The position numbers and the translations under genes were made by a program. This document shows positions 525-46,031 of a stretch of DNA of 64,000 nucleotides, in pieces; positions within the stretch are counted from its first letter, which is position 1; each line of letters opens with the position of its first letter. Origin of the DNA: Pogonophryne albipinna (taxonomy: Eukaryota; Chordata; Actinopteri; Perciformes; Artedidraconidae); contig CM053247.1 of the NCBI GenBank assembly GCA_028583405.1, forward strand, positions 6,964,058 through 7,028,057, in the 5' to 3' direction. Under the pieces are notes generated by a model. That model searched no databases and was not told the DNA's origin. It saw nothing but the letters and a program-made list of their open reading frames with translations.

Positions 525-2619
525 CAGGGATGCAAACTCATCAGGTATGAAAAAGGTGACAAGGATCCGAGCCCCCCAACCCCACGGAATATCGGCTTTA
601 AAATGAGGAATAACAGAGGATTTTAGCAGTCAGAACAACTAAAGCAGCAGTGTTAATAATAACAGAAATGCCAAAGAGTCACATCTAATAGAAATATATA
701 AAAGCATTTATTTTAATTGTGGAGCAGTCAGTTTATAATTTAGGCAGCACTGTTGAGCATTTTGAAAATGTATTTTCATGCCTCTGTGCAAGGCTTAGTC
801 TTTCTATCTGTATAGCCACTGGTGTAAAGTAACTACATTAATAAACTCAAGTACTATACTTGGGTACAATTTTGAGATACTTGTACTTTATTTAAGTATG
901 TCAATGTTTTGCTACTGTGTTCTTCTTCTCCTCTACAGTTCAGAGGTAAATGGTGTACTTTTCTTCCACTACATGTATTTAATACCTTTAGTTACTTCAC
1001 AGATGTGGATGAATGATGTGAAATCTAATCAAGTGTTAAATCAGAATTTAGTTCCACCTGGAGTAAATCCACAAGCTACCCTGCAGTATACAAAGTCATT
1101 CAAACTAGCTGCACCTTTACCAGCTTTGAGAACACTTTCATGATCAATCATTATAAAACATATCATATATATTATTCTGAGATGGACCAATCTGCACAAT
1201 GACTACTTTTACTGTCGCTACTTTCACTATATTTTGATGAGAATACTTTTCTACTTTTACTTGAGGAACATTTTGAATGCAGGACTTTTACTGTAACAGA
1301 GTATTCCTACACTCTGGAACTTCTACTTTTACTCAAGTACAAGACCTGAGTACTTCTACTTTTACTCAAGAACAAGATCTGAGTACTTCTACTTTGACTC
1401 AAGAACAAGATCTGAGTACTTCCACTTTTACTCAAGTACAAGACCTGAGTACTTCTACTATTACTCAAGTACAAGATCTGAGTACTTCTACTTTTACTCA
1501 AGTACAAGACCTGAGTACTTCTACTTTTACTCAAGTACAAGATCTGAGTACTTCTACTTTTACTGTCGCTACTTTAACTATATTTTGATGATAATACTTT
1601 TGTACTTTTATTTGAGGAACATTTTGATTGCAGGATTATTCCTACACTCTGGTACTTCTACTTTGACTCAAACCTGAGTACTTATACTCAAGTACAAGAT
1701 TTGAGTACTTCTACTTTTACTCAAGTACAAGATCTGAGTACTTCTACTTTTACTCAAGTACAAGATCTGAGTACTTCTACTTTTACTCTAGTACAAGATC
1801 TGAGTACTTCTACTTTTACTCAAGAACAAGATCTGAGTACTTCTACTTTTAATGAAGTACAAGATCTGAGTACTTCTACTTTTAATCAAGTACAAGATCT
1901 GAGTACTTCTACTTTTACTCAAGAACAAGATCTGAGTACTTCTACTTTTAATCAAGAACAAGATCTGAGTACTTCTACTTTTAATGAAGTACAAGATCTG
2001 ACTACTTCTACTTTTAATCAAGTACAAGATCTGAGTACTTCTACTTTTACTCAAGAACAAGATCTGAGTACTTCTACTTTTAATCAAGTACAAGATCTGA
2101 GTACTTCTACTTTTACTCTAGTACAAGATCTGAGTGCTTCTACTTTTACTCAAGTACAAGATCTATACTTATACCACCTCTGTTTATAGCCTATGAAAAA
2201 AACTATTAGAAAACGAAGGCTAAAGCTAACGTTAGCAGATAGTGACAATGTATGCTAGTTAGCTAGCTAGCTCAACGATAATATTGCGACAGAAAGACTT
2301 TTCAGTTTACATCACGCTCTGCCGCTCCGACAGGGAGCTCTGCTCTGAACACCTGAACGGCCCGTTCTAACAGCAGTTCACCAGCGGTCTAGTCTGTGCC
2401 ACAGTGACTCCGGACCACACAGTTAATATTAACGAACGCACCCGTAGGTAATGTAGCTGCTGAAGCTAGACCATCATCGCGGCCGCAGATTACTCCGGGT
2501 CCCAGACCCCCCCATACCCCAAAAATATTTTTATTGCAGATCTACATGAATCACACACACGACCTATTTTGGATTCAAAACGGCGAATTTCGCCGAAAGG
2601 TGACAAGTTTGCATCCCTG
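525..2619. mobile_element. Non-autonomous DNA transposon, about 2.1 kb
   Basis: The ends are inverted copies: CAGGGATGCAAACT at 525 and AGTTTGCATCCCTG ending at 2619. Both sides are flanked by TATCA (520-524 and 2620-2624), which fits a 5-bp target-site duplication. No transposase is recognisable inside. The interior holds a second repeat (about 813-2180) built around ACTCAAGTACTATACTT-type motifs, and its last part has expanded into a minisatellite. A relative of that inner repeat lies at 59070-59590. The superfamily is uncertain: the short CAG ends suggest hAT or CACTA, but the 5-bp duplication does not settle it. Confidence 0.6.
1318..2176 (+). repeat. 33-bp minisatellite array
   Basis: This is a tandem array with a unit near GATCTGAGTACTTCTACTTT plus TACTCAAGTACAA (33 bp, 11 codons). 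There are two blocks, about 1318-1565 and 1690-2170, separated by about 125 bp of the flanking repeat. Because 33 is a multiple of three and the unit lacks stops in one frame on each strand, both strands show long artificial ORFs. Variant units (AAGTACAA or AAGAACAA; TACTCAA, AATCAA or AATGAA) are interspersed. I see no promoter or splice context for a gene. Confidence 0.85.
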
Positions 2620-22876: not shown

Positions 22877-25800
22877 GGTCAGTTAACACAACCAAACACA
22901 GTACCGAGCTGAGTGTAGTCTGTTTTATTAACACAAATATGGATTTTTAAAGTACCATTACAGACGTCTTACATGTATCTGTATGTTAACTTCAAGGGGC
23001 ATAGTTCACACCCTTCTAACTGTAACGCAATTCATGCTGGTGTATTACAAACAATTGAATGCACTTTTCATAAGTCAAAGGATCCATTTAGTTTTTTATT
23101 TAATACCAAAAAATATAAAATGTTGACTAGTATCTTGACAATAATGTGCCTATTAGTTGTTCCACTACCATTTGGACGTTATTATTGAAGAGGCTTCACC
23201 ATGGACCGGTGATGTCATTTTTTAAGTTCTCATTCCTATCATGTGCTCCACAATTACAGCAAAGCTGTCGTTGGCAGTACAAATCTTGGGCCTTAGGACA
23301 ACAATACTCATTTAATATACTGTATGTAAAACAGAAAATCTGACAAGTAAAAGCAAAAACGGCTTTAAATAATAGTGCAGGTTATATCCAGCTGGTTAGG
23401 ATACTCTCAATGATGCGCCCGTAGAAGGGCGTCCATCCTGGAGTCCATGTTTAACCTCCTTAGACTTTTGGAGGAAGAAGAGTCTCTTGTTCTCTTTGAG
23501 ATGTTGTTTGCGTGGTGAGTTCAGGTTCATTTTGAGATTGTGGTACGACTGGGCGGTAGTCAATGAAGCAGAGGGCTTAGTCATCAGATCTAGGTGATTT
23601 GCTGGATTAAGCAGTTTGAAAGGTCTACACATTATGTCCTGTATGTTTCTATTGGGCTCCTGAGTCTTTTGTACTTGCTTAACTGGGGAGATTATATTAA
23701 AGCATGCCAAGTTACTCAGCTCTTCTGGGAGAGATGTGGACATTATATCAGCGTTGCTTGGCCTCTTGTAGTCTGTGATGGTTCTTAGTCAAAAACATAT
23801 TTCTGGTGTTGGGGCTCTGGTAGTCAGAAAGAGGTGAGCAATGTATTTTTCATTCTGTAATATGAAGAGATGTCAGAATGCACTGCCTGTGGACTGAGCT
23901 ACTGCCACCCAAGTCCTTTTAGCCAGCAACATGTCAGAAAACAAGTTATTATTTTTGTTTGTCCATAATCAATCCAGCACCTAAAGGAATTGGTTTAAAA
24001 TGTTATTGAGAACATAAAAAATCACAAATCTTCAGAGAAACTGGGGTCAGACAATGTAAATCAATTATTGAATAATGGTTTTAGCAGAACAGTTGTGTCA
24101 CTGTTGTTTCTTTCCATGCCCTACAGAGGGGAAGAAAGCTAATGGCTAGTCAGCAAGAAAGTGCAGCTGCCTTAAACAGTATAAATGATTTTCAACTTAC
24201 ATACTCCAAATACTTTTCTATCATAGTATAGGTTTTATTATGTACTAACACAATACAATTATTATTCTTGTTTAACATTAAAAACAATTGAAAACAGACA
24301 GAATCAAAATCACATTGACCTTTGTCCTTCATCTTCTTTCCGTCTTTCTCTCCACAGTAAAGTGAACAACAGGAATCTATACTTGGCAACGTTTGTGTCT
24401 GTTCTTGGTCCCATGAGCTTCGGGTTCGTGTTGGGGTACAGCTCACCTGCCATCCCAGAACTTACCAGTATCAGTGACCCTCGGCTGCGGCTGGACGCTA
24501 ACCAGGCCTCCTGGTTTGGGGTAGGATGTTACCATATCACTTGGCTCAAAGCAGAACTGCTTTTAGAAGATGTGTTTTTAACATATCAGCAGTTGTATGT
24601 CACCACATGTTGCCCATAAACATCTCATTGGATTCACATGGGTTCAAAACATGGTAAAAGTATAAAGAAACACACAAAAAACTCTAATAGTATCAGACGT
24701 CTAATGTAAGGTAATTTTGGAGAAACCAGCTCGAGTGCGCTAGAATCTGCTACTTCCTTACAGAGCCCCTCCTCCAACACACACGAACGCGCACATGACC
24801 AATGAGGGCATGAGATAAGTTTGTGCACAGATGGAAGGCTGACAGGCAGGTAGGCCATCCAGTTATTTTAGCCGGGCCGGCTGTTTTATTATTATTGTAG
24901 GAGCCATGAAACGTATATAGCAATGCGTTTGGTTTTGATATAGGATGTTTGTTTGGTCACTGTTGATTGGTTAGCTTGGGTCACATGGATATGGGCGGCA
25001 CTCATTATAATCCTGTTCACCTGCGTGAGGTGTGTGTGTGGAAGAGAGGGTGACACAGGGCCGTTGTACTTTTTGTTGACCGCACGTTTTAATAATTGCT
25101 TTGATTAATATAACGATGTACATGTCCAAGGAAAATAAGTTGATCATCCCAGTTTTCATTGAACCACATACTTTTTCAACAGAGTTTTTGATCTCAGCAA
25201 GTACTTTTTTGTAGCGTGTCTAATGTCGCGTTTCCACTGCAGCGGGTAGCTCGCTTTAAGCGAGGCCCGTTTTTGGTTGCGTTTCCACTTGGCCTAGTTT
25301 TGGCCCGGGGCTACTTTTTCACCTTTTTTCTGACCCGACTAAATCGTGGTTCTAGGGCCAGGAACAACCAGGCTGAGTCGGGCTGAGTATGCTAAACTAG
25401 AGAGAGAATCGCTGGCAAGGGGGCTACAACTACAACAAGATGAACATCTTTGACCGTGATTTAATTGTAATACACGTTTCAAAATGATGCCGAAGTAACA
25501 ACATACTGATACCGGTTAGTAAAAACCATGAATTAATGCTTTGACAAGTCTGCAGACAGACGGCAGGCGAAAAACCCTTTTAAAATGCGTGTTTTCTGAA
25601 TGGAGCTTGGCTAAGCTAACGTTATATATGCTCCGACCGTCCACACTCACAACAACGGCCTATACAGACATAAATAAACCAGCGACTGTATTCTCCATGA
25701 CTCAGGCAGTCTGTGGTTTGTACTTGTTTAACTTTTGTCTAGTTTCTGAACAGATATGAAGAGCTCTGAGTGCTAAGAGCTAACGGCTGTGTTGTTTTTC

Positions 25801-28800
25801 TGGGGCTCTCATTGAAGATGACGTCACGGCTCCTCCTACACTGCGTTACTATAGTAACTACCACAGTTCCTAAACTGTAATGGAAGCGCAGCATTAAAGT
25901 GAGCCGGGCCTAATAAGGCCTAACCAAACCGAGCGAGGCCTGCAGTGGAAACGCGCCATAACAGGCCCGGCCTCAGCCTCTCAGCGACTTTGTTTGTTTC
26001 CTGCTGTCGCTATATTTTGTCAACAAAAAACAACACAACAAGCACACAAGGCGTAAGGCGATCATCATCAAACAGGGCATGGATTAAGGATCTATTGGAG
26101 GAGAATGGAGATAAGAAATCATTGGAAACAATTCACGGAGGCACTGGCTGTTAATAAAGACTGCAGTTTTGGAAGCTGCATTCAACGTGGATCACGGCCA
26201 GGTAAGCCTTACCACTGAATGTGCACATATTCTCCACTCTGTCGCATGGAAGTCACGCTGCTCTGTTGATGTGGAAATGTGATGCTTTTCAAGAAATTAT
26301 CTTCCGATCTGTGAGTGTGTTACAATCAAACGAATGCACTGAAGAAGTTCCAATAATCAAACGGAGAAAATTAGTCAAATAAATGTTGACGTGTAAAATG
26401 TTGAAATGGACTATGAGAAAAGAGAACGCACACTCAATGCGAAGGCATCGGTAAATATAACATCGAAAAACTTCAACGGGAACGTAAAACCAGTGTGAAC
26501 AAAATAAAAGCACTCATACCAGAAATAAAAGCACATATGAGAGAAAAAGGAAAGGCCTCACGTGTGCAAACTCATTTAGAGAAATTATTTGGGGTGAAAA
26601 AGCCATTATTTCACATGAAATGTTGATTCCTTTACTCCCAGAGGATGAACTGAAGAAACAAAAGGAATGGTTTGCCAGTATCTTGGAATACAGTGAAAGC
26701 TTTCAGAGGGACATTAATCAGTGGTTAAAGGAGCCACAAGAGGATTCTGCCACAATAACTGCTGCTGTGCTGTGCTGTTCCAACAACGAATGATATGCAA
26801 GAGGATGTACAACCAAGTGACAGTGTGTCAAACGTGGAAACCGGAAGAAGAGCAACCCGATCACAGAATTCTGCTTTGGGGAAAAAGTCTGCAACTTCTA
26901 CTGCTTCGTCTGCATGCCGTAAAACAGAGGCTGACTTGGCAGCTTTAATGGCAAGAAATAAACGATTAAAGGACAAACATGAACTGGAGATGGAGGAGAA
27001 ACGAATAAGGAGCAAACTTCAGATGGAGGAGGATATTGCAGCACACATGGCTAATATGATTATAATACGAAAGTTACCTTACCAATTCAGAGACAAGTGG
27101 AGTACTTTAGCCTGTGAGCTGCAGGAGAAGAACAGCTGCAGAGCAACATTCTTTCACAATTTTAATTGAGAGACAAGTTAAAATCTTAACCGACCCAGTA
27201 TTTGGAAACATACAAGATGCTCCCTTCATAACAACAAATACTGGTTTAAACAGATCACAGCCTCGCTCAAAGCCGCAGAGCAACATTCTTTGACATCACA
27301 CACTTCATTGAGAGACTAGTTAAAATCTTAACCGACCCAGTGTTTGAAAACATTCTAGATGCTCCCTTCATAACAGCAAATACTGCTTTAAACAGATCAC
27401 AGCCTCGCTCACATTTTGTAGGAACTAGCTTTTCCACCACTGTAGCTCTTGTAGAAAAAGAAACCCAGACAGATACTGAATGGAAGGAACACATTCTGAC
27501 AAAATGGACGACATGTCTGTGCTGCGGAGGAGGTCACACCTTGGACTCGTGCCATCAACTTGAAAAAGGAACACACAAAGAGAAGATAGGCTTCTTGATG
27601 GAAAAAGATGTCTGTTTCGGCTGTTTGTGCGTGGGGCACATTAGCAGAAATTGCAATAAACTAATTTCCTGTTCAAAATGTGGCTTCAAACATCCAACCA
27701 TACTTCACATCCCTTCCAATGAAGCAAGACACAATCCTGCTCAAGCCAAGAATACATCAGAGCTATCAGTGTACAGCACACTGGTTTCAAGTGGCCTTAC
27801 AGGGGCTGGTGATGACAACTGTAAACCTCCCATAGTTCCAGTGCAAGTCAAGTCAACGAAAGGCAGCAAGATCGTCACCACCTATGCTTTCTTGGACCCA
27901 GGAAGTACAGCAGTGTTTTGTACAGAGGATTTGATGCACGAGCTCGGCCTAACTGGAAAGAAGGCGCAGATTCGTTTACGAACCATGGGCCAAGAAAGGG
28001 TCGTAAATAGCCATATTGTGTTCGGACCAGAAGTGGCTGGCTTAAAAAATGACAATTTCTGTGAACTGCCACAAAGCTACACCCAAGAGTGCATGCCTGC
28101 CCACAGTGGGAACATTCCTAGACAAGCGGACCTACAAAGATGGCCTCATCTAAAAAACGTTAATTTGAAATAAATGCAGGGATTGGACTGTTGATAGGAA
28201 CCAATGTTCCTAAGGCCTTGGAACCATTGGAAGTCATATGCAGTGTGGATGATGGACCATATGCAAGCTGGACAATCCTAGGCTGGACAGTGAATGGACC
28301 ACTAGAAGGAGTGAGTGGGAATGCAATGGACTTTGACAAACCAGAAGTATCTGTGAACAGAATCTCAGTTGTGAATTTGGAGGAACTTTGGCAACAGCAG
28401 TTCAGCGCAGACTTCCCTGAATGCAGATTGGAGGAACAAGCTGGAATGTCAAGAGAGGATCTCAAGTTTAAGAAGTTTGCGAAGAAAGTGTTTTCTCAGC
28501 AAGAGCAAGAGCAAGAGTCGAAGAAGTGTAAAAAGAAAAGTATTAAAGATGAGAAGAAGCCTCATCCCAAATCCCAACAAAAGCCCTCTCCTTCAACGGC
28601 TGCTCAGAAAGGTGCCCGCTGCAAGCAAAAGAAATGTAACAGCCATCGTGTTCAACAAGGTGGAGACTGTGGAGAACAAGATGAAGTGGACCAACATGCT
28701 CTACAAGGCCGAAGGACTCAACATCAAAGACGACGAGGACATGCTGCGCTCCTCGTTAAAGAAGGAGTGGGACGATCGAAGCAAGAATATCGTGGAGAAG

Positions 28801-31800
28801 ATGCAGAAACGGCAGGAAGAGACAGAAGAACATCCGACATCAGTGACATCTTTACCACAATATTGACTGTTTTCGACTGACCGACTTAAAGGACACTAAG
28901 GATTCTTTTTGACTGAGCCTAGGTGGTGGTACCTTTTGGCCTAACTGACTTGTGACTCGTACACAGAAAAGAAGAAGGAAAACTACACATGCATGAACTG
29001 CAACTGCATGGACTTGATTACCAAGCTATAATTGTCTCCCATTTTAACAATGTTAGTAATTATTATGTATACTAACCTAATAATTAGAGGCTGGTGTGTA
29101 GGAGCCATGAAACGACACAGGGCCGTACTTTTTGTTGACCGCACGTTTTAATGATTGCTTTGATTAATATAACAATGTACATGTCCAAGGAAAATAAGTT
29201 GATCATCCCAGTTTTCATTAAACCACATTATTTTTCAACAGAGTTTTTGATCTCAGCAAGTACTTTTTTGTAGCATGTCACACAATATCTAACAGGCCCG
29301 GCCTCAGCCTCTCAGCGACTTTGTTTGTTTCCTGCTGTCGCTATAATTATTGTGACACATGTGACATGTGTTTTGGCACATTTTATGTTTTTATATTTGC
29401 ATCCTTTCTGAAGCTGCAGCGTGTTTCTCCTATTGTAAATGTTCTTGGCCGTTGTAAATGGTTTGCATGGTCAGCATATAAACCTTTTTATAAATCGAAA
29501 TAAGTATCATGAGTGAAATGTTTGGACAGAAAAGCTAGGCAGTAGAGAAGAGCAGATTTCTGACAACAATCTACTTCTAATGTGTACTTGGAGTTTTCAA
29601 ATTGGGCGAATACGTAGTGAACTGTTAATATGACACTATATTTCCCCAAGGCTCAGTGTTGTTTATTTCTCAGTCCATAGTGACGGTGGGGGCGGCGGCC
29701 GGCGGCCTGCTGGGCGGATGGATGGTGGAGAAGTTCGGCCGGAAGCTCAGTCTGATGTTCTGCTCGCTGCCGTTCGTCTTCGGTTTCACCATGATCATCG
29801 CAGCTCAGAACGTGTGGATGCTGTACGTCGGCAGAGTGCTCACCGGCCTCGCCAGCGGGGTCACCTCACTGGTGGTCCCGGTAAGTAGCACCGGCATGCT
29901 TTCCAGCCCCTAAAGGAATTGGTTATCATTTGTATTGAGAACAGAAAAAGAGCACATGTTTGGAGAAGCTGGGGTCAAATAATGTTAATCAATTAATTGA
30001 ATAATTGTTCTAGCAGAAAAGTAGTTTCACTGTTTCTTTCCATGCCCTACAGAGGGAAAGAAAGCTAATGGCTAGTCAGCAACAAAGTGCAGCTGCCTGA
30101 AACAGTATGAATGATTTTCAACCGACATACTCCAAATGCTTTTCTATCATCTTATATTGGTGAAAGAATGAATGAAATGAACACTCCCCGGTATCGCCTT
30201 TTTACTTCATATATAAGCAGCGGAACTGTCATTGACTCCAAATTGGGAAAATTGTTTTGTTGCAGCAGCAAAATATATAAATATATCCAATTCAACTCCA
30301 ATCCAACTTTATTTCTATAGCACATTTAAAAACAGTTGACCAAAAAATATAAATATATAAAAAAATAACAGATAGGATATAAAAACAAATGTAGAACACA
30401 GGGCAATAAAAAACATAGCCACAGACTGAAAACTCACATACGTGACGTAAAAGCAATATAAAGCCCCAATTTAAAAGTCTATGTAAATATATCCAGATTA
30501 ACAGTAGAAAAATGTACGTCTATAAATAGAAAATAAACAGTAAAAATCCACTAATAGACAGACTTACAACTTAAACAACATATATAAACATAGGGTACTA
30601 AATACATAACACAAGTATGCAAATAGCCATTTATTTGTATTAAAATGTGATTGCATTACAGGTATGTCTGTGGAATATTAGCACATCTGTTTGCGTTGTT
30701 ATGCTGCATATTTATAAAACATCAATTACTACATCCCAGATAACTTTTTAAATGTGTCTCTTATACATATTTTCCCCGACAAATTACTTTAGAGCTTAAA
30801 CATTTGGTAAGACAATTAATGTATTTACAGAAAATGAAATGTCAACTGTTAATGTATTTGATAAATATTGATGAATCACTCACACATTGGCAAAATTGCC
30901 AAACACTCTCTGCTTTTAGCCTCATAAATATAGAGCCTTTGCTAAGTTTTCAATTTTACATTATTGTTCTATCAAATGACAAAACAAGCATTTTGATGTG
31001 CTGGTAACTTTGGACCTTTTTGTACAACCAATAATGAATTAATAAGTAAGTAAACAGCATGTGAATCAATAATAACGCAACAAAAAAATATGAATAGTAA
31101 TATACCTATGATTTTTGGCTATAGCTGCAACTTGTTTCTCTTTTACTCAGTTCGATAATGAAAATAGTTTGATTATGTGTCTTTGGGTCAAAGTCTAGAA
31201 TATCACTGAGCGTTCTCTGGTGTCATTTTCTCGTTGTCTCTCTTCATACAGCTGTATATCTCTGAGATGGCCCATGAGCGGGTACGCGGGACCTTAGGCT
31301 CCTGTGTGCAGCTCATGGTGGTGATAGGCATCATGGGAGTGTATCTCGCAGGTATGTCTCCTCAGCTTTATGTCTTTATGGAGTCCTTCAATCTCATTTA
31401 ATAAAGTCTGACTACAGGATATTGAAACGTGCTGAATGTTTAAGAAACATAAGTCTCACGAGGTCACAGTTTACAAGCTGTATATCATTAACTTCCAGCG
31501 TAAGACAGTAGCTGAAAAATACATAGCTACAAATCTTATCTCAAAATGTGTAATATCTTTGCTCGTTCTGGTTATTATCTGTATTCATTATCTTCTCTAA
31601 ACACCTAATGTAAACCTGCTTAGTTAAAAATGTCCTTAGGTTGCTATACTGTTTCAAACGTCTGGTTCAAAGGTTGTGGTGCATCATGTGATGTCCTCAA
31701 ATATGATCGGAGTCCCGTGCTGCCTCTTCTACAGCCTCACTGACCTGCCGCTCGCTAATCTTGTTCGCCGCATGCCATTCACTTTGACCCAATAGAAGAT

Positions 31801-34800: not shown

Positions 34801-37800
34801 ATGATTTAAATAAAATGAGGGCTCATTGCTTAAACATTTGTAGTGAGTGTGGGTCCTTTAACACTCTGAAAATAGTCCAGTTAAATTTAAGGTGGATATG
34901 AGTGTTTATGAATACAGAGTTCAGAGTGTGGCGTTTGGGTGCAGGTTAGAGTGTAGGGTTTTGGGGGGATTGGAGGAGAACCTGGAAGTGGCAGAGAAAA
35001 ACTTACCTGGAGGTCCAGGCAGGCCAGGGAGGATCCCAGAGCATCACATGCAGGTCAAAAGATGAAGAATTGTATTCATCCCACCAGCTCCCGGGGTCAT
35101 GTGTTTTCAAAAGTCCACCTGGTTGACCAAAAAAGTCCCCAAAAATGCAGCTAGGTTAATAAACTGGATCAGACTGCCACTTCTTTCCTCTTTCAGCATT
35201 TTTTCACAGCCCTCTCGTCTCCTTTGTGCAACTTCCAGCAGTCATCTCCTTTCCTCTTCAGCTCACAGGTGTGGCTTATTTGTCAAAATAGCTTCCTCCA
35301 GCTCTCAGGTGTGGATTGTTTAGCCCCTCCCCTTTATGATCAGGGAAGGAATCTTTTTTTATTTTGCCCGTTCCTGCTACCAGCGTAGCGTAGTAGAGGA
35401 GTAGGGTTTGAAATATTACCCGCACAGCTATTTTTACCAAATGTTCATAACAGACTTTGCTTGTTTCCCATTCATAATCAAGGTGTTGCCATGGCGATCA
35501 GCACCACAGCTTTCGGGGTTTACTTCTACCTGATGTCTAAAAATCACCCCCCGACACTGGGACTCTTGGTGCTGGACATCCAGAGCACAGCGGGCGAGGA
35601 ACCCCATGCTGACCTGGCCTGGCTGGCCCTGGCCAGCATGGCTGTCTTCATCACAGGTGAGACCCTGACTCCCTGACACAACTCTAACCCTGTCATTAAA
35701 GGCCCCGACACGCAGAACAAGTGCCAAAGAGCAAGTTTAGACATGTTGTGCCTGATTAAATTGTCTGGATATTGATAGATATTGCATTACAATATGTTGA
35801 TGATTGTGATTTTCAGGGTTTTAAGAAGTAATCCGATCCTTTACTTTGGCAAAAGTACTAATACCCTTCTGTGAAAATACTCCTCTACAATTTAAAGCCA
35901 TGCATTTAGACTTTACTGAAACTAAAGTATTTAAATAATGATAATAATAATAATTCATTACATTTATTAGAGTGCTCAAAGTGCTTTATATTACATATTA
36001 CACATATCAGATATACAATTAAAGGGATACTATTGTGCTTTTGGGTTTTTTTCCCTTTCCTGTGGTGTGTTACACTGAACAAAAATATAAACGCAACACT
36101 TTTGTTTTTGCTCCCATTTTTTATGAGATAAACTCAAAGATCTAAAACATTTTCTATATACACAAAATAACCATTTCTCTCAAATATTGTTCACAAATCT
36201 GAAAAAATCTGTGATAGTGAGCACTTCTCCTTTGCCGAGATAATCCATCCCACCTCACAGGTGTGGCATATCAAGATGCTGATTAGACAGCATGATTATT
36301 GCACAGGTGTGCCTTAGGCTGGCCACAATAAAAGGCCACTCTAAAATGTTCAGCGGCAAACTCTGGGGAAGAGCCGGGACGCCAATACGGAAGTGCCACA
36401 CACTGCAGTTCATACATGGGCTGCTAGGGACTGGCTGCAGAAAGGAGCAATTTCCATAGACCCCCATGTTAAAATGCCCAACTTTACAGCAGAAAAAAAC
36501 ATGTTTCTACCCATGGATGCAATACATATTATTATCGATATAGTTAGATTCCACCTTCATGATTATGAATCTGTGAGTGAATTGTTTTCTAACGCTTTTA
36601 TTTATATTAAAGTTTTTGCATAAATTAGGGCGTGGTCACTTTGATGGACACGTACATGCCTCACTGTCAGCTAACAGCAACTTGTCCACTCTGCTAGGCT
36701 ACAACCATAGAGGCTACAACGTTAGTTAGTCATAGTACTGTACTTGACCCTTTAGCTTTAGCCGTGTTCGTGGTGATTGTGCCTTTTAGGGAATATTGTT
36801 ACAAATACCAGACAATTAAAATGTCGTGCTGTGCGCTTGAATGTACTAACAGAACTTCCAAGAAGTCTAAAATGATAATATTATACATGTTAACCCCGTT
36901 CGCAGGTGTTTGTGTGCTTGGTAGCTTAGCTTGTTACTTATTAGCCAGCTAAGGACGTAACCCTTTATGCATACATATACATTTTAGTTTATGATTCAGC
37001 CTTGGGTAAGACTTTTATAGTCTATGGCTATGACGCCCATAATGCTAAACGGGAGCAAATGTTAATAGGGGACCCAATTATCCCAGTGGTGGCCGCCGGA
37101 GCTAACGGAGCCGCAGGGGGCTAGCTCCAGCCGGCGTCCCGGAGCTAGCCCACTGCGGCTCCGTTAGGTCCGGGCGGTGGAGTCCGTCTTTTCTCAACGT
37201 GTGAATGACAAGCATTAAGAATAACAAAATATAGCTAATTCTCTTGCAGATTGTCTCATTTGATTATGAATGTAACGTTTATATAGGGGAACTACACTGT
37301 TAGCAGTAACTTGGTATGCATGTATTTCATGTTAGCTTAGCTTCTTAGCCTGAGCTAGCTCGGTTTACTTCCAGTTCGGAGGCAGCAGGTCCCGCCTCGG
37401 CTCCGCCTCTTTGCCCTTATTTGGAGCAGGCGGGATTAGACTCTGACGTCACAGTCGAGCCGTTAGTGGCCGACTCCGCCTACTAAGGGCTTCACGGCAA
37501 CTCTGCAGAATCCTATGGGTGACGTCACGGACACTACATCCATTTATATATACAGTCTATGGTTTTATCACACAGCACAATGCCACAGATGTCGCAAGTT
37601 TTGAGTGAGCGTGCAATTGGCATGCTGACAGCAGGAATGTCCACCAGAGCTGTTGCCCGTGAATTGAATGTTCATTTCTCTACAATAAGCCGTCTCCAAA
37701 GGCGTTTCAGAGAATTTGGCAGTACATCCAACCGGCCTCACAACCGCAGACCACGTGTAACCACACCAGCCCAGGACCTCCACATCCAGCATGTTCACCT

Positions 37801-39561
37801 CCAAGATCGTCTGAGACCAGCCACTCGGACAGCTGCTGCAACAATCGGTTTGCATAACCAAATAATTTCTGCACAAACTGTCAGAAACCGTCTCAGGGAA
37901 GCTCATCTGCATGCTCGTCGTCCTCATCGGGGTCTCGACCTGACTCCGATTCGTCGTCGTAACCGACTTGAGTGGGCAAATGCTCACATTCGATGGCGTC
38001 TGGCACGTTGGAGAGGTGTTCTCTTCACGGATGAATCCCGGTTTTCACTGTTCAGGGCAGATGGCAGACAGCGTGTGTGGTGTCGTGTGGGTGAGCGGTT
38101 TTCTGATGTCCATGTTGTGAATCGAGTGGCCCATGGTGGTGGTGGGGTTATGGTATGGGCAGGCGTATGTTATGGACGACGAACACAGGTGCATTTTATT
38201 GATGGCATTGTGAATGCAAAGAGATACCGTGACGAGATCCTGAGGCCCATTGTTGTGCCATTCATCCACGACCATCACCTCATGTTGCAGCATGATAATG
38301 CACGGCCCCATGTTGCAAGGATCTGTACACAATTCCTGGAGGCTGAAAACATCCCAGTTCTTGCAAGGCCAGCATACTCACCGGACATGTCACCCATTGA
38401 GCATGTTTGGGATGCTCTGGATCGGCGTATACGACAGCGTGTTCCAGTTCCTGCCAATATCCAGCAACTTGGCACAGCCATTGAAGAGGAGTGGACCAAC
38501 ATTCCACAGGCCACATTCAACAACCTGATCAACTCTATGCGAAGGAGATGTGTTGCACTGCGTGAGGCAAATGGTGGTCACACCAGATACTGACTGGTTT
38601 TCGCACCCCCCCAGACCCCCCCAATAAAGCAAAACTGCACGTTTCAGTGGCCTTTTATTGTGGCCAGCCTAAGGCACACCTGTGCAATAATCATGCTGTC
38701 TAATCAGCATCTTGATATGCCACACCTGTGAGGTGGGATGGATTATCTCGGCAAAGGAGAAGTGCTCACTATCACAGATTTTTTCAGATTTGTGAACAAT
38801 ATTTGAGAGAAATGGTTATTTTGTGTAAATAGAAAATGTTTTAGATCTTTGAGTTCATCTCATGAAAAATGGGAGAAAAAACAAAAGTGTTGCATTTATA
38901 TTTTTGTTCAGTGTATATAGGTTTTTGTGCATGTAAACGGTCTGCAAAGGCTAAAATCCCTGTCCCTTTATGAACATTAAAGCATGTAAACATGTCACAG
39001 TAGAGGCACAAAATACAAATGTCCACCTGAACATTTGCAGAATAGGGCCCCTTTAATCCACAGCAATGCATCATATTCCACTAGATCATCATATGTTTAT
39101 AGCGTTCCTGTGAGAACTACACATTTCTTCTCAGAAAAGCCTTCTTTATCTAAATTATGGCCATGCTTTTCCTAACTAATCCAAGAAGCTTTTGAATGAG
39201 CTTGAAAAAAAGGATAATTTTAATAAAGGAACGCTTTGTCCTTCAAATTATCACAGATATTCAAAATCTAACTTCATAAAATCACAAGTTGCATACAATT
39301 GAAATGGACTAGTATGTCCAGTTTGTTTTTAAAGGTCCCATGTCATGGCCATTTCTACTGATCATAATTCCATTGTTGAGGTCTACCAGAATAGATTTAT
39401 ATTGTGCAATGTTCCAAACTCACATTGGTTTCTCATACAGCATCTCTGTATAGTATGTGTATTCACTCTCTGTCCTAAACGGCTTGTTGGAGCTCCTGCC
39501 CCCCCACCCCTGTGAGCCCAGTGTGCTCTGATTGGTCGAGAAGCTGACAGGCTCCTTGCTG

Positions 39562-43152: not shown

Positions 43153-44654
43153 AAGGTCCCATGAAACAAAGAATTTTGCAGAATCTTTATCGTACTGATG
43201 TTTTGGGAGGCGAATTATTTATGTGACTGGAGTCTGACTAATTGTTAATCTAACCGTAGTTTACATCATCAGAGAAATGAAGTGAAACTCGAACAGATTC
43301 TCTGATGCAAAGCTTTTCGAAACATCTATCAACAACACTGCAAACAATGAACTCTGTTTTTTGGTAACTTGTGTAATATTCGGCTCTTATTTTGTTTAAA
43401 TTAAATGTTTTACAATTGTACTCTGAGTTCAGTCTGAACGGGAGCAAATTAAGCTTTTTGTTGTTGGTGTTTCTTATACCATTGCTATTAAAGAATTTCA
43501 ACTTTATTATTATTATTAAAGGACAGCCTGGGATGCAGAAGGCAGAAAGAATACCCTTTTAAAAATGATGGCAGGATGATCTATCCGTACGAAATATGTG
43601 AAATTGCAATTAATTTATAACCGAATATTCAACATTAATTTCAGGTGTTGTGTTGAAGGGGCTGAAACATAAAAGTCAGTTGAGAGAAAAGGGTACAGCT
43701 TTTTAAACCTTTGTATAAAAAAGATTAACAAAAAGCTTCATAATTGGATGTGAAGAAGAGTGGGCTACAGTTGAGCTATAGCCTATCTGTTGTCGTGAGC
43801 AGGACACTTCATAAATCACTCTTTTGAACCTCTGATTTCCGCTTTTTTTTACTTTTACATTCTTGTCAGGTATTGTTTTGGATTTCTGATTAAATGAGCC
43901 ACAGTTGGACAAAGAGGCCTGTGTACACTTTCACACTGTTATAGCTTAACATGGTGATATTTGTGTAGCCTACTGTAATGGACTTTTCTAATTTCATAAT
44001 TGTGAGTAATTAGTTGTGTTGACTGGCTAAAAACGAGCTATCTGAATCACGCATCACTATTACATTACATTTAGCTGACGCTTTCTCCTTTACAATGGTA
44101 AAATAAGTCAACAAAACGTACATTTAACGTAACTTTCCAGGAAAAACGACCGGTGACCGACTTCAAAACTCCCCGTCAACAAGCGCTCCTGGTCCCAGCC
44201 GTGTGCATCACTGTTTAGTGTCCCCTTTTTTGTTTTCCTTATGTCCTGAGCTTCTTGCATCGTTATTATTAAACAACCTTTAACGTATGCAGCGTTTCCC
44301 TGACTTCATTTGAAGAGCAAGACGTCATCGATTTATGCCTTAAAGTTTTATGACGTAATGAGCATTTCATCTTCCCTGCACATCTGAATTCGAAGTACTG
44401 CCAAGGTGGCTTGGTAAGACTTAGTTTGTTCAGAGAGACTGTAGCTTTTGAAAAAACAGCAAGTAAGAAAAGTAAACAAACTTTAACATTTTACATTTTA
44501 TTTAAACATTGGGCTAAAAGTTGAATAAATTCCAACTCCAAGAACAACAGCAACTCGAGGTTGCACACACAAAACAACTAAAGGCAGCTTTATATTTCAA
44601 GGTGAACCCTTTGCTGCTGAAACTCAATTGTTTAATTTAGACACATTTCTCAAA

Positions 44655-46031
44655 ATGGAGACAATTGAGTATGATAGCAAATTCCAGCTCCAGGCGAAAG
44701 AAGATGCAGTAAAATATAAGCAGAAGCTGTTTGCTGAAGAACTGTTCTCACAAAGCCTCAAAATAGAGTCTCTGCAGTCTGAAAACAAGATTCTAAAGGC
44801 AACTATTGAAAACGACAAGGATGTATTAAAAGAGAAACTAGGGTATATTGAGGAACTTCTTGACGAGAAAAAATCTTGGAACAAAAAAGTTGGAGACGCA
44901 GAGGCAGAGGCAAAAATCAAAAAGCTGCAGCAATCAATTTTCACCAAAGACACCCAATTTGAGGAACATAAAAAAGAACTCATTGCAAAGTATGAGTCTC
45001 TCATACGGAGAAGCTCAGCAGAGTTTGAAGAAAATGAGAGGAGTTTGCTGGCAACGCATGAAAGGCAAATAAGCAGTATTTTGGGAGAAAAGAATGAAAA
45101 ACAAGATAAAATATTGGAAGAGAAGCTGCAAGAATGTAAAGCCGATGTGTTAAAGGAGACAAATAAAGTAATTCAGAAGGAAAAAGAGCTGGTCAACTTA
45201 AAAGATAGAATGGCAGCTGAAATCGAGACCGGTATTTTTCATAAAAGATTAGATGCAAATGTGGAAAATCTTTTGGTTAAGAAACGTCAGGACGACCTAG
45301 TTGAAAGACTGAGGAAAGAAGTAGTGAGACTAGAGGCAAAGCCGGATTTAACTAATGATTTGGCTAAGTCACATAAACAATGCGAGGATCACAAGATGAT
45401 TATTAAAAGGGAAAAAACGGAAATATTCAATTTAAAGAAGGATGAAAAAGCATTGGTAGACAATTTGGCAAAAGAAAAGGACCGCAACCTTATTACAAAT
45501 CTTAAATTAGAAAAAGAGAAGGAGAAATCCAAGCGTTTGGACCAAAAGTTCAGAATCTGCGAGACTGAACACATGAAGAACAAGGCAAGCCTGAGCCAGA
45601 ACTTGAATGAAAACAAGGTCCTGAAAGGAAGGGTCGCAGATCTACACTCTAAACTCAGGGGCTGTCAGCCACTCATGATCAAAGGGCGCGTAAAAACCCA
45701 AGACATGGAGACCTACATCATGCGCTGTAAGGAAGATATACAAGCAGTGGCTGATATCACTGACCCCAAGAAGCTTATTATCGGTGTTGCTCATCTCAAA
45801 GCACAGCACGTAGATGGCGATGACAGAGTGCCAATGGAGGAAAACACGAGGACAGGGTATCGTCATATGGTTGACGGCTTGATGCATCAGGTTAAAGGTT
45901 TGGCAAGGGTTCACACAGCCGATGCCAAGCTAGTGGAACGTACCAGGGACGAAGTTAACTGTTTTAATCAAAGAAAGATCAACTTGTGTAGAACATCATC
46001 AACGAGACAACACACGAGGTCTTGGCGCTAA
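44655..46031 (+). CDS. Intronless coiled-coil protein resembling the CFAP57 C-terminal half
   Basis: The frame is 458 aa from ATG in a good context (AAAATGG), and it stays open upstream to 44529 without another ATG. The first about 340 residues are continuous charged coiled coil. The last third (for example DMETYIMRCKEDIQAVADI, LIIGVAHLKAQHV) aligns in pattern with the conserved end of CFAP57 (WDR65), a ciliary inner-arm dynein factor with WD repeats followed by coiled coil. WD repeats are absent here. The family match is from memory and moderate. No splice sites are needed. A one-base shift near 46000 appears to cut the natural end (see the next entry). A retrocopy truncated at its 5' end would give exactly this arrangement, but an independent single-exon gene is possible. 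The intact length argues for recent origin or selection. Confidence 0.5.
   Translation: METIEYDSKFQLQAKEDAVKYKQKLFAEELFSQSLKIESLQSENKILKATIENDKDVLKEKLGYIEELLDEKKSWNKKVGDAEAEAKIKKLQQSIFTKDTQFEEHKKELIAKYESLIRRSSAEFEENERSLLATHERQISSILGEKNEKQDKILEEKLQECKADVLKETNKVIQKEKELVNLKDRMAAEIETGIFHKRLDANVENLLVKKRQDDLVERLRKEVVRLEAKPDLTNDLAKSHKQCEDHKMIIKREKTEIFNLKKDEKALVDNLAKEKDRNLITNLKLEKEKEKSKRLDQKFRICETEHMKNKASLSQNLNENKVLKGRVADLHSKLRGCQPLMIKGRVKTQDMETYIMRCKEDIQAVADITDPKKLIIGVAHLKAQHVDGDDRVPMEENTRTGYRHMVDGLMHQVKGLARVHTADAKLVERTRDEVNCFNQRKINLCRTSSTRQHTRSWR

What the first reader, a model, noticed from the sequence alone, without database searches (positions are those of the whole stretch)
24896..29345. A BEL/Pao retroelement that swapped its polymerase for host surf6 coding sequence
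Between two LTRs and an exact ATTAT duplication, gag and protease are followed, at the usual pre-RT linker MSREDLKF, by intron-free surf6-like sequence instead of RT, RNase H and integrase. The junction keeps the frame (KFKKFAKKVFSQQ), so the element once could have made a Gag-protease-SURF6N fusion. This is the arrangement of a transduced cellular gene, as in acute transforming retroviruses, but in a fish BEL element. The later surf6 core (KMKWTNMLYKAEG, VEKMQKRQ) is in another frame.
Basis: partly seen in the sequence, partly recalled or inferred. Interest (0 to 1): 0.88.

Follow-up and report, generated by a model that had tools for sequence, protein, structure and literature searches.

The report
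Jumping gene carrying captured host gene
A retrotransposon in this animal genome lost its polymerase genes, carries pieces of the spliced messenger RNA of the host gene surf6 in their place, and spread to about twenty places, while a second, only distantly related retrotransposon appears to have captured the same host gene separately.

Summary
Window 24896-29345 is a BEL/Pao-type element (two LTRs, exact ATTAT duplication) whose pol, after the pre-RT linker MSREDLKF, is replaced by surf6 sequence; only the last pol codons (VTSLPQY*) remain. The window's genome holds at least 22 loci of this family A, 18 with both junctions. Ten of ten copies in which both outer LTR ends were found have perfect, mutually different 5-bp duplications: the chimera moved as a unit. 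surf6 came from spliced mRNA: one copy keeps the exact exon 1/2 join, and four later losses lie between short direct repeats. A second BEL family (B, five loci) carries another surf6 segment with the exact exon 3/4 join. Backbones A and B differ at 46% of aligned pre-RT bases, their shared surf6 bases at 13%, so the gene was probably captured twice. Shared variation in family A favours third codon positions in gag-protease but not in surf6, a modest signal: surf6 looks like cargo.

The parts
24891..24895 (+). left target-site duplication ATTAT
   Evidence: sequence
24896..26014 (+). 5' LTR, interrupted by a nested inverted-repeat element
   Evidence: self comparison
25224..25958 (.). nested DNA-transposon-like element with 20-nt inverted repeats (95%) and TAA duplication (25221-25223 and 25959-25961); empty site in the 3' LTR
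26401..27783 (+). gag remnant (limits approximate) with frameshifts; 750-790 nt present in many other copies missing; tandem duplication 27154-27269 / 27296-27411; zinc-knuckle-like Cys/His stretch near 27520-27710 (motif recalled)
27784..28131 (+). aspartic protease region
   Evidence: Pfam Asp_protease_2 E 7e-4, below cut-off
28164..28469 (+). pre-RT linker ending MSREDLKF
   Evidence: 49 of 102 residues identical to the same stretch of family B
28471..28835 (+). captured surf6 sequence: CDS 35-76, 130-218, 535-594 and 764-961 of this genome's gene, with internal losses
28843..28866 (+). last codons of the element's own pol (VTSLPQY*)
   Evidence: same end as the integrase-bearing relative L036
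28867..29096 (+). 3' untranslated region of the element
   Evidence: 86-94% to other copies where matched
29097..29345 (+). 3' LTR with an internal deletion
29346..29350 (+). right target-site duplication ATTAT

Best explanation
A BEL/Pao element captured surf6 by template switching of reverse transcriptase between its own RNA and a co-packaged spliced surf6 mRNA, losing RT, RNase H and nearly all of integrase. The resulting gag-pro-surf6 element kept LTRs, leader and pol end, was copied in trans by RT and integrase of another element, and spread to at least 22 loci while surf6 was trimmed further between short direct repeats. A second, only distantly related BEL family captured another part of the same mRNA independently. 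Shown: junctions, exon joins, target duplications, direct repeats at four losses, different breakpoints and backbones of the two families. Inferred: template switching, trans supply, that there were two captures, and their order.
For: Copies and junctions: (22 family A loci; 18 with both junctions, L025 among them with a 34-nt longer form of the 3' one). Transposition: 10 of 10 copies with both outer LTR ends found have perfect, mutually different 5-bp duplications. Spliced mRNA: L025 has the exact exon 1/2 join, L031-L035 the exact exon 3/4 join, against GT..AG introns in the gene L028. Losses at direct repeats: TAAAGAAG at CDS 851/881, TGGAG at 590/764, GCAAAA at 229/715, ACATCAGTGA at L025 5233/5267. 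Pol end kept: L036 carries an integrase core (rve E 7e-5, below cut-off), DUF5641 (E 1e-30) and the same VTSLPQY* end. The 26 loci of the exon-4 search are the gene and 25 BEL chimeras. Two captures: different breakpoints on both sides; 166 of 306 backbone bases identical before RT against 106 of 122 shared surf6 bases, Fisher p 5e-11. Gag-protease: 25 of 45 shared-variable sites at third positions against 42 of 130 singletons, p 0.008; surf6 8 of 26 against 22 of 65.
Against: No RT-bearing relative close to family A was found: which scored 40 of 112 candidates, the pre-RT matches above 80% are chimera loci plus one truncated copy without the junction (L047); the rest are about 70%, and the integrase search did not complete, so the helper is unknown. 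The selection signal is modest: p values are uncorrected for several tests, the pre-RT stretch alone shows little (8 of 19 shared against 14 of 38 singletons), the non-coding 3' UTR control gave 9 of 19 shared against 15 of 43 singletons at an arbitrary third position, and shared gag-pro against shared surf6 is p 0.10. 8 of 19 copies have in-frame stops in gag-protease. The tree of copies was poorly supported. In L018 the five bases of the duplication also follow the 5' LTR on its inner side, unexplained.
Confidence: 0.9

Rival explanations
1. Separate surf6 retrocopies (LINE-type processed pseudogenes) landed inside BEL elements.
For: surf6 is free of introns in the chimeras.
Against: The same 3' junction without poly(A) or surf6 3' UTR in 20 of 22 loci, ending in the element's own pol end; the same 5' junction in 19 of 22; no retrocopy outside the elements among 26 loci.
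Confidence: 0.02
2. One capture only: families A and B inherited surf6 from a common ancestral element and trimmed different parts.
For: Both are BEL elements; of 144 comparable surf6 sites, A and B agree against the gene at 2.
Against: Backbones differ at 46% of aligned pre-RT bases, shared surf6 at 13%; breakpoints differ on both sides; distances A-gene 9.3-10.3%, B-gene 3.5-5.3%, A-B 12-13.6%, with 7 sites where B and the gene agree against A; B and the gene have ATC (KIKWTN) where A has ATG and human SURF6 has Met. Without an outgroup gene this ordering rests on few sites.
Confidence: 0.07
3. The surf6 segment was moved from one BEL family to the other by recombination between elements.
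For: LTR subtypes differ among family A copies, and the window gag has a duplicated stretch with 91% identity, so mixing occurs.
Against: The two segments share only about 122 compared bases, and B is closer to the gene than to A.
Confidence: 0.08
4. surf6 gives the element a function (a basic tail on Gag-Pro that binds RNA or nucleolar NPM1) and was selected twice.
For: Both captures join surf6 in its own frame not far apart in pol (about 30 codons); in family B the three length changes shared between copies keep the frame, and L035 reads from part of gag through protease and surf6 without a stop. SURF6 interacts with NPM1 (PMC6265330, abstract seen).
Against: Family A shows no third-position excess in surf6 and stopped, shifted or mixed frames in many copies, with progressive loss of surf6. 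In family B, L032-L034 share an in-frame stop, L031 has frame changes, and L035 leaves surf6's frame in its last residues.
Confidence: 0.15

Closest known systems
Maize Bs1 LTR retrotransposon (passages read in PMC13317346, PMC5408686, PMC7264820)
   Same: LTR element carrying segments of host genes. That Bs1 lacks RT is recalled, not read.
   Different: Plant element with segments of three different genes; [quoted passage not shown] Here one gene was taken by two BEL families of an animal genome, one with at least 22 loci.
LTR-mediated retroposition in metazoans (Tan et al. 2016; not held; known through passages of PMC5408686 and PMC8232201)
   Same: mRNA joined into LTR elements by template switching at microsimilarities, reported in zebrafish among others.
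   Different: Here the chimera replaces pol and amplified as a family; whether Tan et al. list amplified families could not be checked.
Acute transforming retroviruses (recalled)
   Same: Host coding sequence fused behind gag in place of pol, dependent on a helper.
   Different: Endogenous BEL/Pao element; no envelope noticed (none was searched for); cargo is a ribosome-biogenesis gene without sign of selection in family A.

Membership tests
BEL/Pao LTR retrotransposon | paired LTRs with 5-bp target duplication | tested here: met
   10 of 10 family A copies with both outer ends found
BEL/Pao LTR retrotransposon | BEL-type gag domain DUF1759 (its link to BEL is recalled) | tested here: met
   L012 E 1.8e-6 above cut-off, L024 E 2.3e-5 just below; family B L031 E 1.2e-9; region missing in the window copy
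BEL/Pao LTR retrotransposon | BEL-type RT, RNase H and integrase in pol | tested here: not met
   surf6 lies in their place; relative L036 with the same leader and pol end has integrase core (below cut-off) and DUF5641. So it is called a BEL-derived, non-autonomous family
Transduced host gene | derived from spliced mRNA | tested here: met
   exact exon 1/2 join in L025, exact exon 3/4 join in L031-L035
Transduced host gene | chimera replicated as a unit | tested here: met
   same junctions at many places with different target duplications
Transduced host gene | fusion protein made | not testable with these tools
   surf6 frame kept at least 20 residues past the junction in 14 of 19 copies; expression unknown
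Processed pseudogene (LINE-type) | poly(A) tail and own target duplication around the gene copy | tested here: not met
   surf6 ends at CDS 961 of 1044 and joins the pol end

The most novel reading that the evidence does not exclude
Two distantly related BEL families each gained a surf6-derived tail on Gag-Pro because it helps a polymerase-less element, for instance by sending Gag or its RNA to the nucleolus or by helping packaging; surf6 would be a recurrent host donor for retrotransposons.
Probability: 0.15. Interest if true: 0.9.

Novelty: new variant of a known kind. Interest (0 to 1): 0.74.

Why it matters
It is a genomic record, with intermediates, of a retrotransposon taking up a host mRNA, amplifying it and trimming it. 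If the same gene was taken twice by two backbones, one can ask whether some host mRNAs are preferred donors (packaging, purine-rich repeats) or whether the cargo is useful. Both are testable by comparing related genomes.

Tried and rejected
Considered and rejected: chance match (Pfam and PDB E near 1e-9, plus DNA identity to the gene); LINE-type retrocopy; assembly artefact (many contigs, different duplications); segmental duplication for family A (ten copies with different duplications; the other twelve could not be tested this way). Three of the five family B loci, on C3, are 98.5-99.6% alike over long stretches, so family B is five loci but probably three insertions. A tree of 22 sequences (21 family A copies and L036) was too weakly supported to order the losses. 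A first site comparison returned empty because of an unsupported BLAST setting and was redone. Viral contigs held no relative of the 163-aa query. Rfam at gathering thresholds and the tRNA scan were empty.

Papers: surf6 with retrotransposon listed 6 papers; in the one with most mentions (PMC9065133, passages) the word is part of a dye name; the others were seen as listing only. surf6 with retrocopy: 0 papers. The broader listings showed no title on this; most of those papers were not opened. Opened: passages of PMC8232201, PMC9065133, PMC13317346, PMC5408686, PMC7264820; outline and abstract of PMC6265330.

Not answered: the integrase search with L036 and the family B pre-RT search, so the helper element remains open.
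Full report
Observation. The window element spans 24896-29345 with LTRs that both start TGTAGGAGCC and an exact ATTAT duplication. Its 5' LTR is interrupted by an inverted-repeat element with a TAA duplication, whose empty site is seen in the 3' LTR. Aligned LTR parts have 6 mismatches in about 240 positions. Gag is decayed and lacks 750-790 nt present in many other copies. After the protease region and the linker MSREDLKF come 365 nt of surf6, then the codons VTSLPQY*, which are also the pol end of the integrase-bearing relative L036.

Copies. A search of the window's own genome (1.07 Gb, 861 contigs) with 28400-28900 gave 35 rows, which I count as 29 places: 22 loci of the window's family A, 5 of another family B, the surf6 gene (4 rows on C20), and one relative without surf6 (L036). 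The tool calls such counts lower bounds. Of the 22 A loci, 19 carry the 5' junction, 20 the 3' junction (L025 and L027 in a form 34 nt longer) and 18 both. Outer LTR ends were sought by motif in 20 A loci; three of these were fetched again longer, two of which gave both ends. Ten copies have both outer ends, and ten of ten have a perfect 5-bp duplication: attat, gttgg, ctgtt, ctgcc, cagtc, accac, gtatg, ggtgt, gttgt, actgt. In L018 the same five bases also follow the 5' LTR on the inner side, which I cannot explain. The relative L036 matches at 4 of 5 positions. LTR pairs of family A differ by K2P 0.009 to 0.059 over the stretches that aligned.

Origin from spliced mRNA. The gene L028 has four coding exons with GT..AG introns and a 1044-nt coding sequence. 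L025 keeps GACCGTTTG|CTCATTTC, the exon 1/2 join; family B keeps GAGGACAG|GGAAC, the exon 3/4 join. Family A copies differ in how much surf6 is left: L025 and L027 hold stretches lost elsewhere, and L010-L024 lost a piece that the window and L009 keep. Four losses lie exactly between short direct repeats of 5 to 10 nt, as expected of template switching (mechanism text: PMC5408686, passage read).

Census of the gene. With exon 4 as query, 26 loci match: the gene, 20 of family A and 5 of family B. No other surf6 retrocopy was detected, but two fragmentary A loci (L026, L030) were not in this list, so short fragments can be missed.

Second capture. Family B (L031-L035) has DUF1759 gag (L031 E 1e-9), LTRs that share only short stretches with A (best E 0.2), and surf6 CDS 321-612 and 740-825 (to 596 and from 745 in L031) joined further into pol (after ..AEQRIQSLKRK). 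A and B agree at 166 of 306 bases (54%) in the pre-RT stretch and 389 of 620 (63%) from knuckle to protease, but at 106 of 122 (87%) of the surf6 bases compared (window against L035). The surf6 of B is closer to the gene (3.5-5.3%) than that of A (9.3-10.3%); of 144 comparable sites, B and the gene agree against A at 7, A and B against the gene at 2, A and the gene against B at 1. At CDS 777 B and the gene have ATC where A has ATG; human SURF6 has Met there, which suggests that A is older. I read this as two captures. Three of the five B loci are near-identical on one contig.

Function. In gag-C/protease of 19 A copies, 25 of 45 shared-variable sites are third positions against 42 of 130 singletons (p 0.008); with the pre-RT stretch added, 33 of 64 against 56 of 168 (p 0.015); in surf6 8 of 26 against 22 of 65 (p 1.0). 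Against this: pre-RT alone gives 8 of 19 against 14 of 38; the non-coding control gives 9 of 19 against 15 of 43 at an arbitrary third position; shared gag-pro against shared surf6 is p 0.10; the p values are not corrected for several tests. So Gag-Pro was probably kept working while the chimera spread, and surf6 in A was probably cargo. In B the three shared surf6 length changes keep the frame, and L035 is open from part of gag into surf6, leaving surf6's frame only in its last residues; L032-L034 share an in-frame stop and L031 has frame changes. A use of surf6 there is not excluded.

Helper. In one search, which scored 40 of 112 candidates, the pre-RT matches above 80% are chimera loci plus C5:2879996, a truncated copy without the junction; the rest are about 70%. 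The supplier of RT and integrase is thus inferred.

Known kinds. Bs1 of maize and LTR-mediated retroposition in animals are the nearest precedents (passages read; the primary animal paper is not held). What I did not find within the searches is a report of a BEL family with surf6, or of one host gene captured twice; most listed papers were not opened.

Noticed in passing
L031-L035 (C12:36.14M, C3 three places, C6:42.02M): Second BEL family with its own surf6 segment; L035 reads open from part of gag through protease into surf6 in surf6's frame.
   Followed up: yes
L036 (C849:1-7000): Short relative with family A LTRs, leader and pol end but integrase instead of surf6; perhaps a deletion derivative of the RT-bearing parent.
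   Followed up: partly
window 27154-27411: Tandem duplication in gag whose copies differ by 9%, more than the LTR pair (about 2.5%), which suggests recombination between diverged elements before insertion.
   Followed up: partly
window 24227-24619 and 29629-29913: Exon-like stretches of a sugar transporter near both ends (for the right one, the left one by eye), so the element lies inside or beside such a gene in the same orientation; 23973-24224 and 29902-30150 are 87% alike.
   Followed up: partly
window 37523-38593: Open frame of 356 aa that looks like a Tc1-type transposase (recalled).
   Followed up: no
window 44529-46031: Intron-free 500-aa coiled-coil-like frame followed by another frame near 46000; could be a retrocopy of a cilia gene (guess); no Pfam family above cut-off.
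   Followed up: no
L042 1845-5319: Another LTR element (407-bp repeats, 99.3% alike) inserted in the protease region of a family A copy.
   Followed up: no
window 1313-2174: Minisatellite of about 33-bp units.
   Followed up: no
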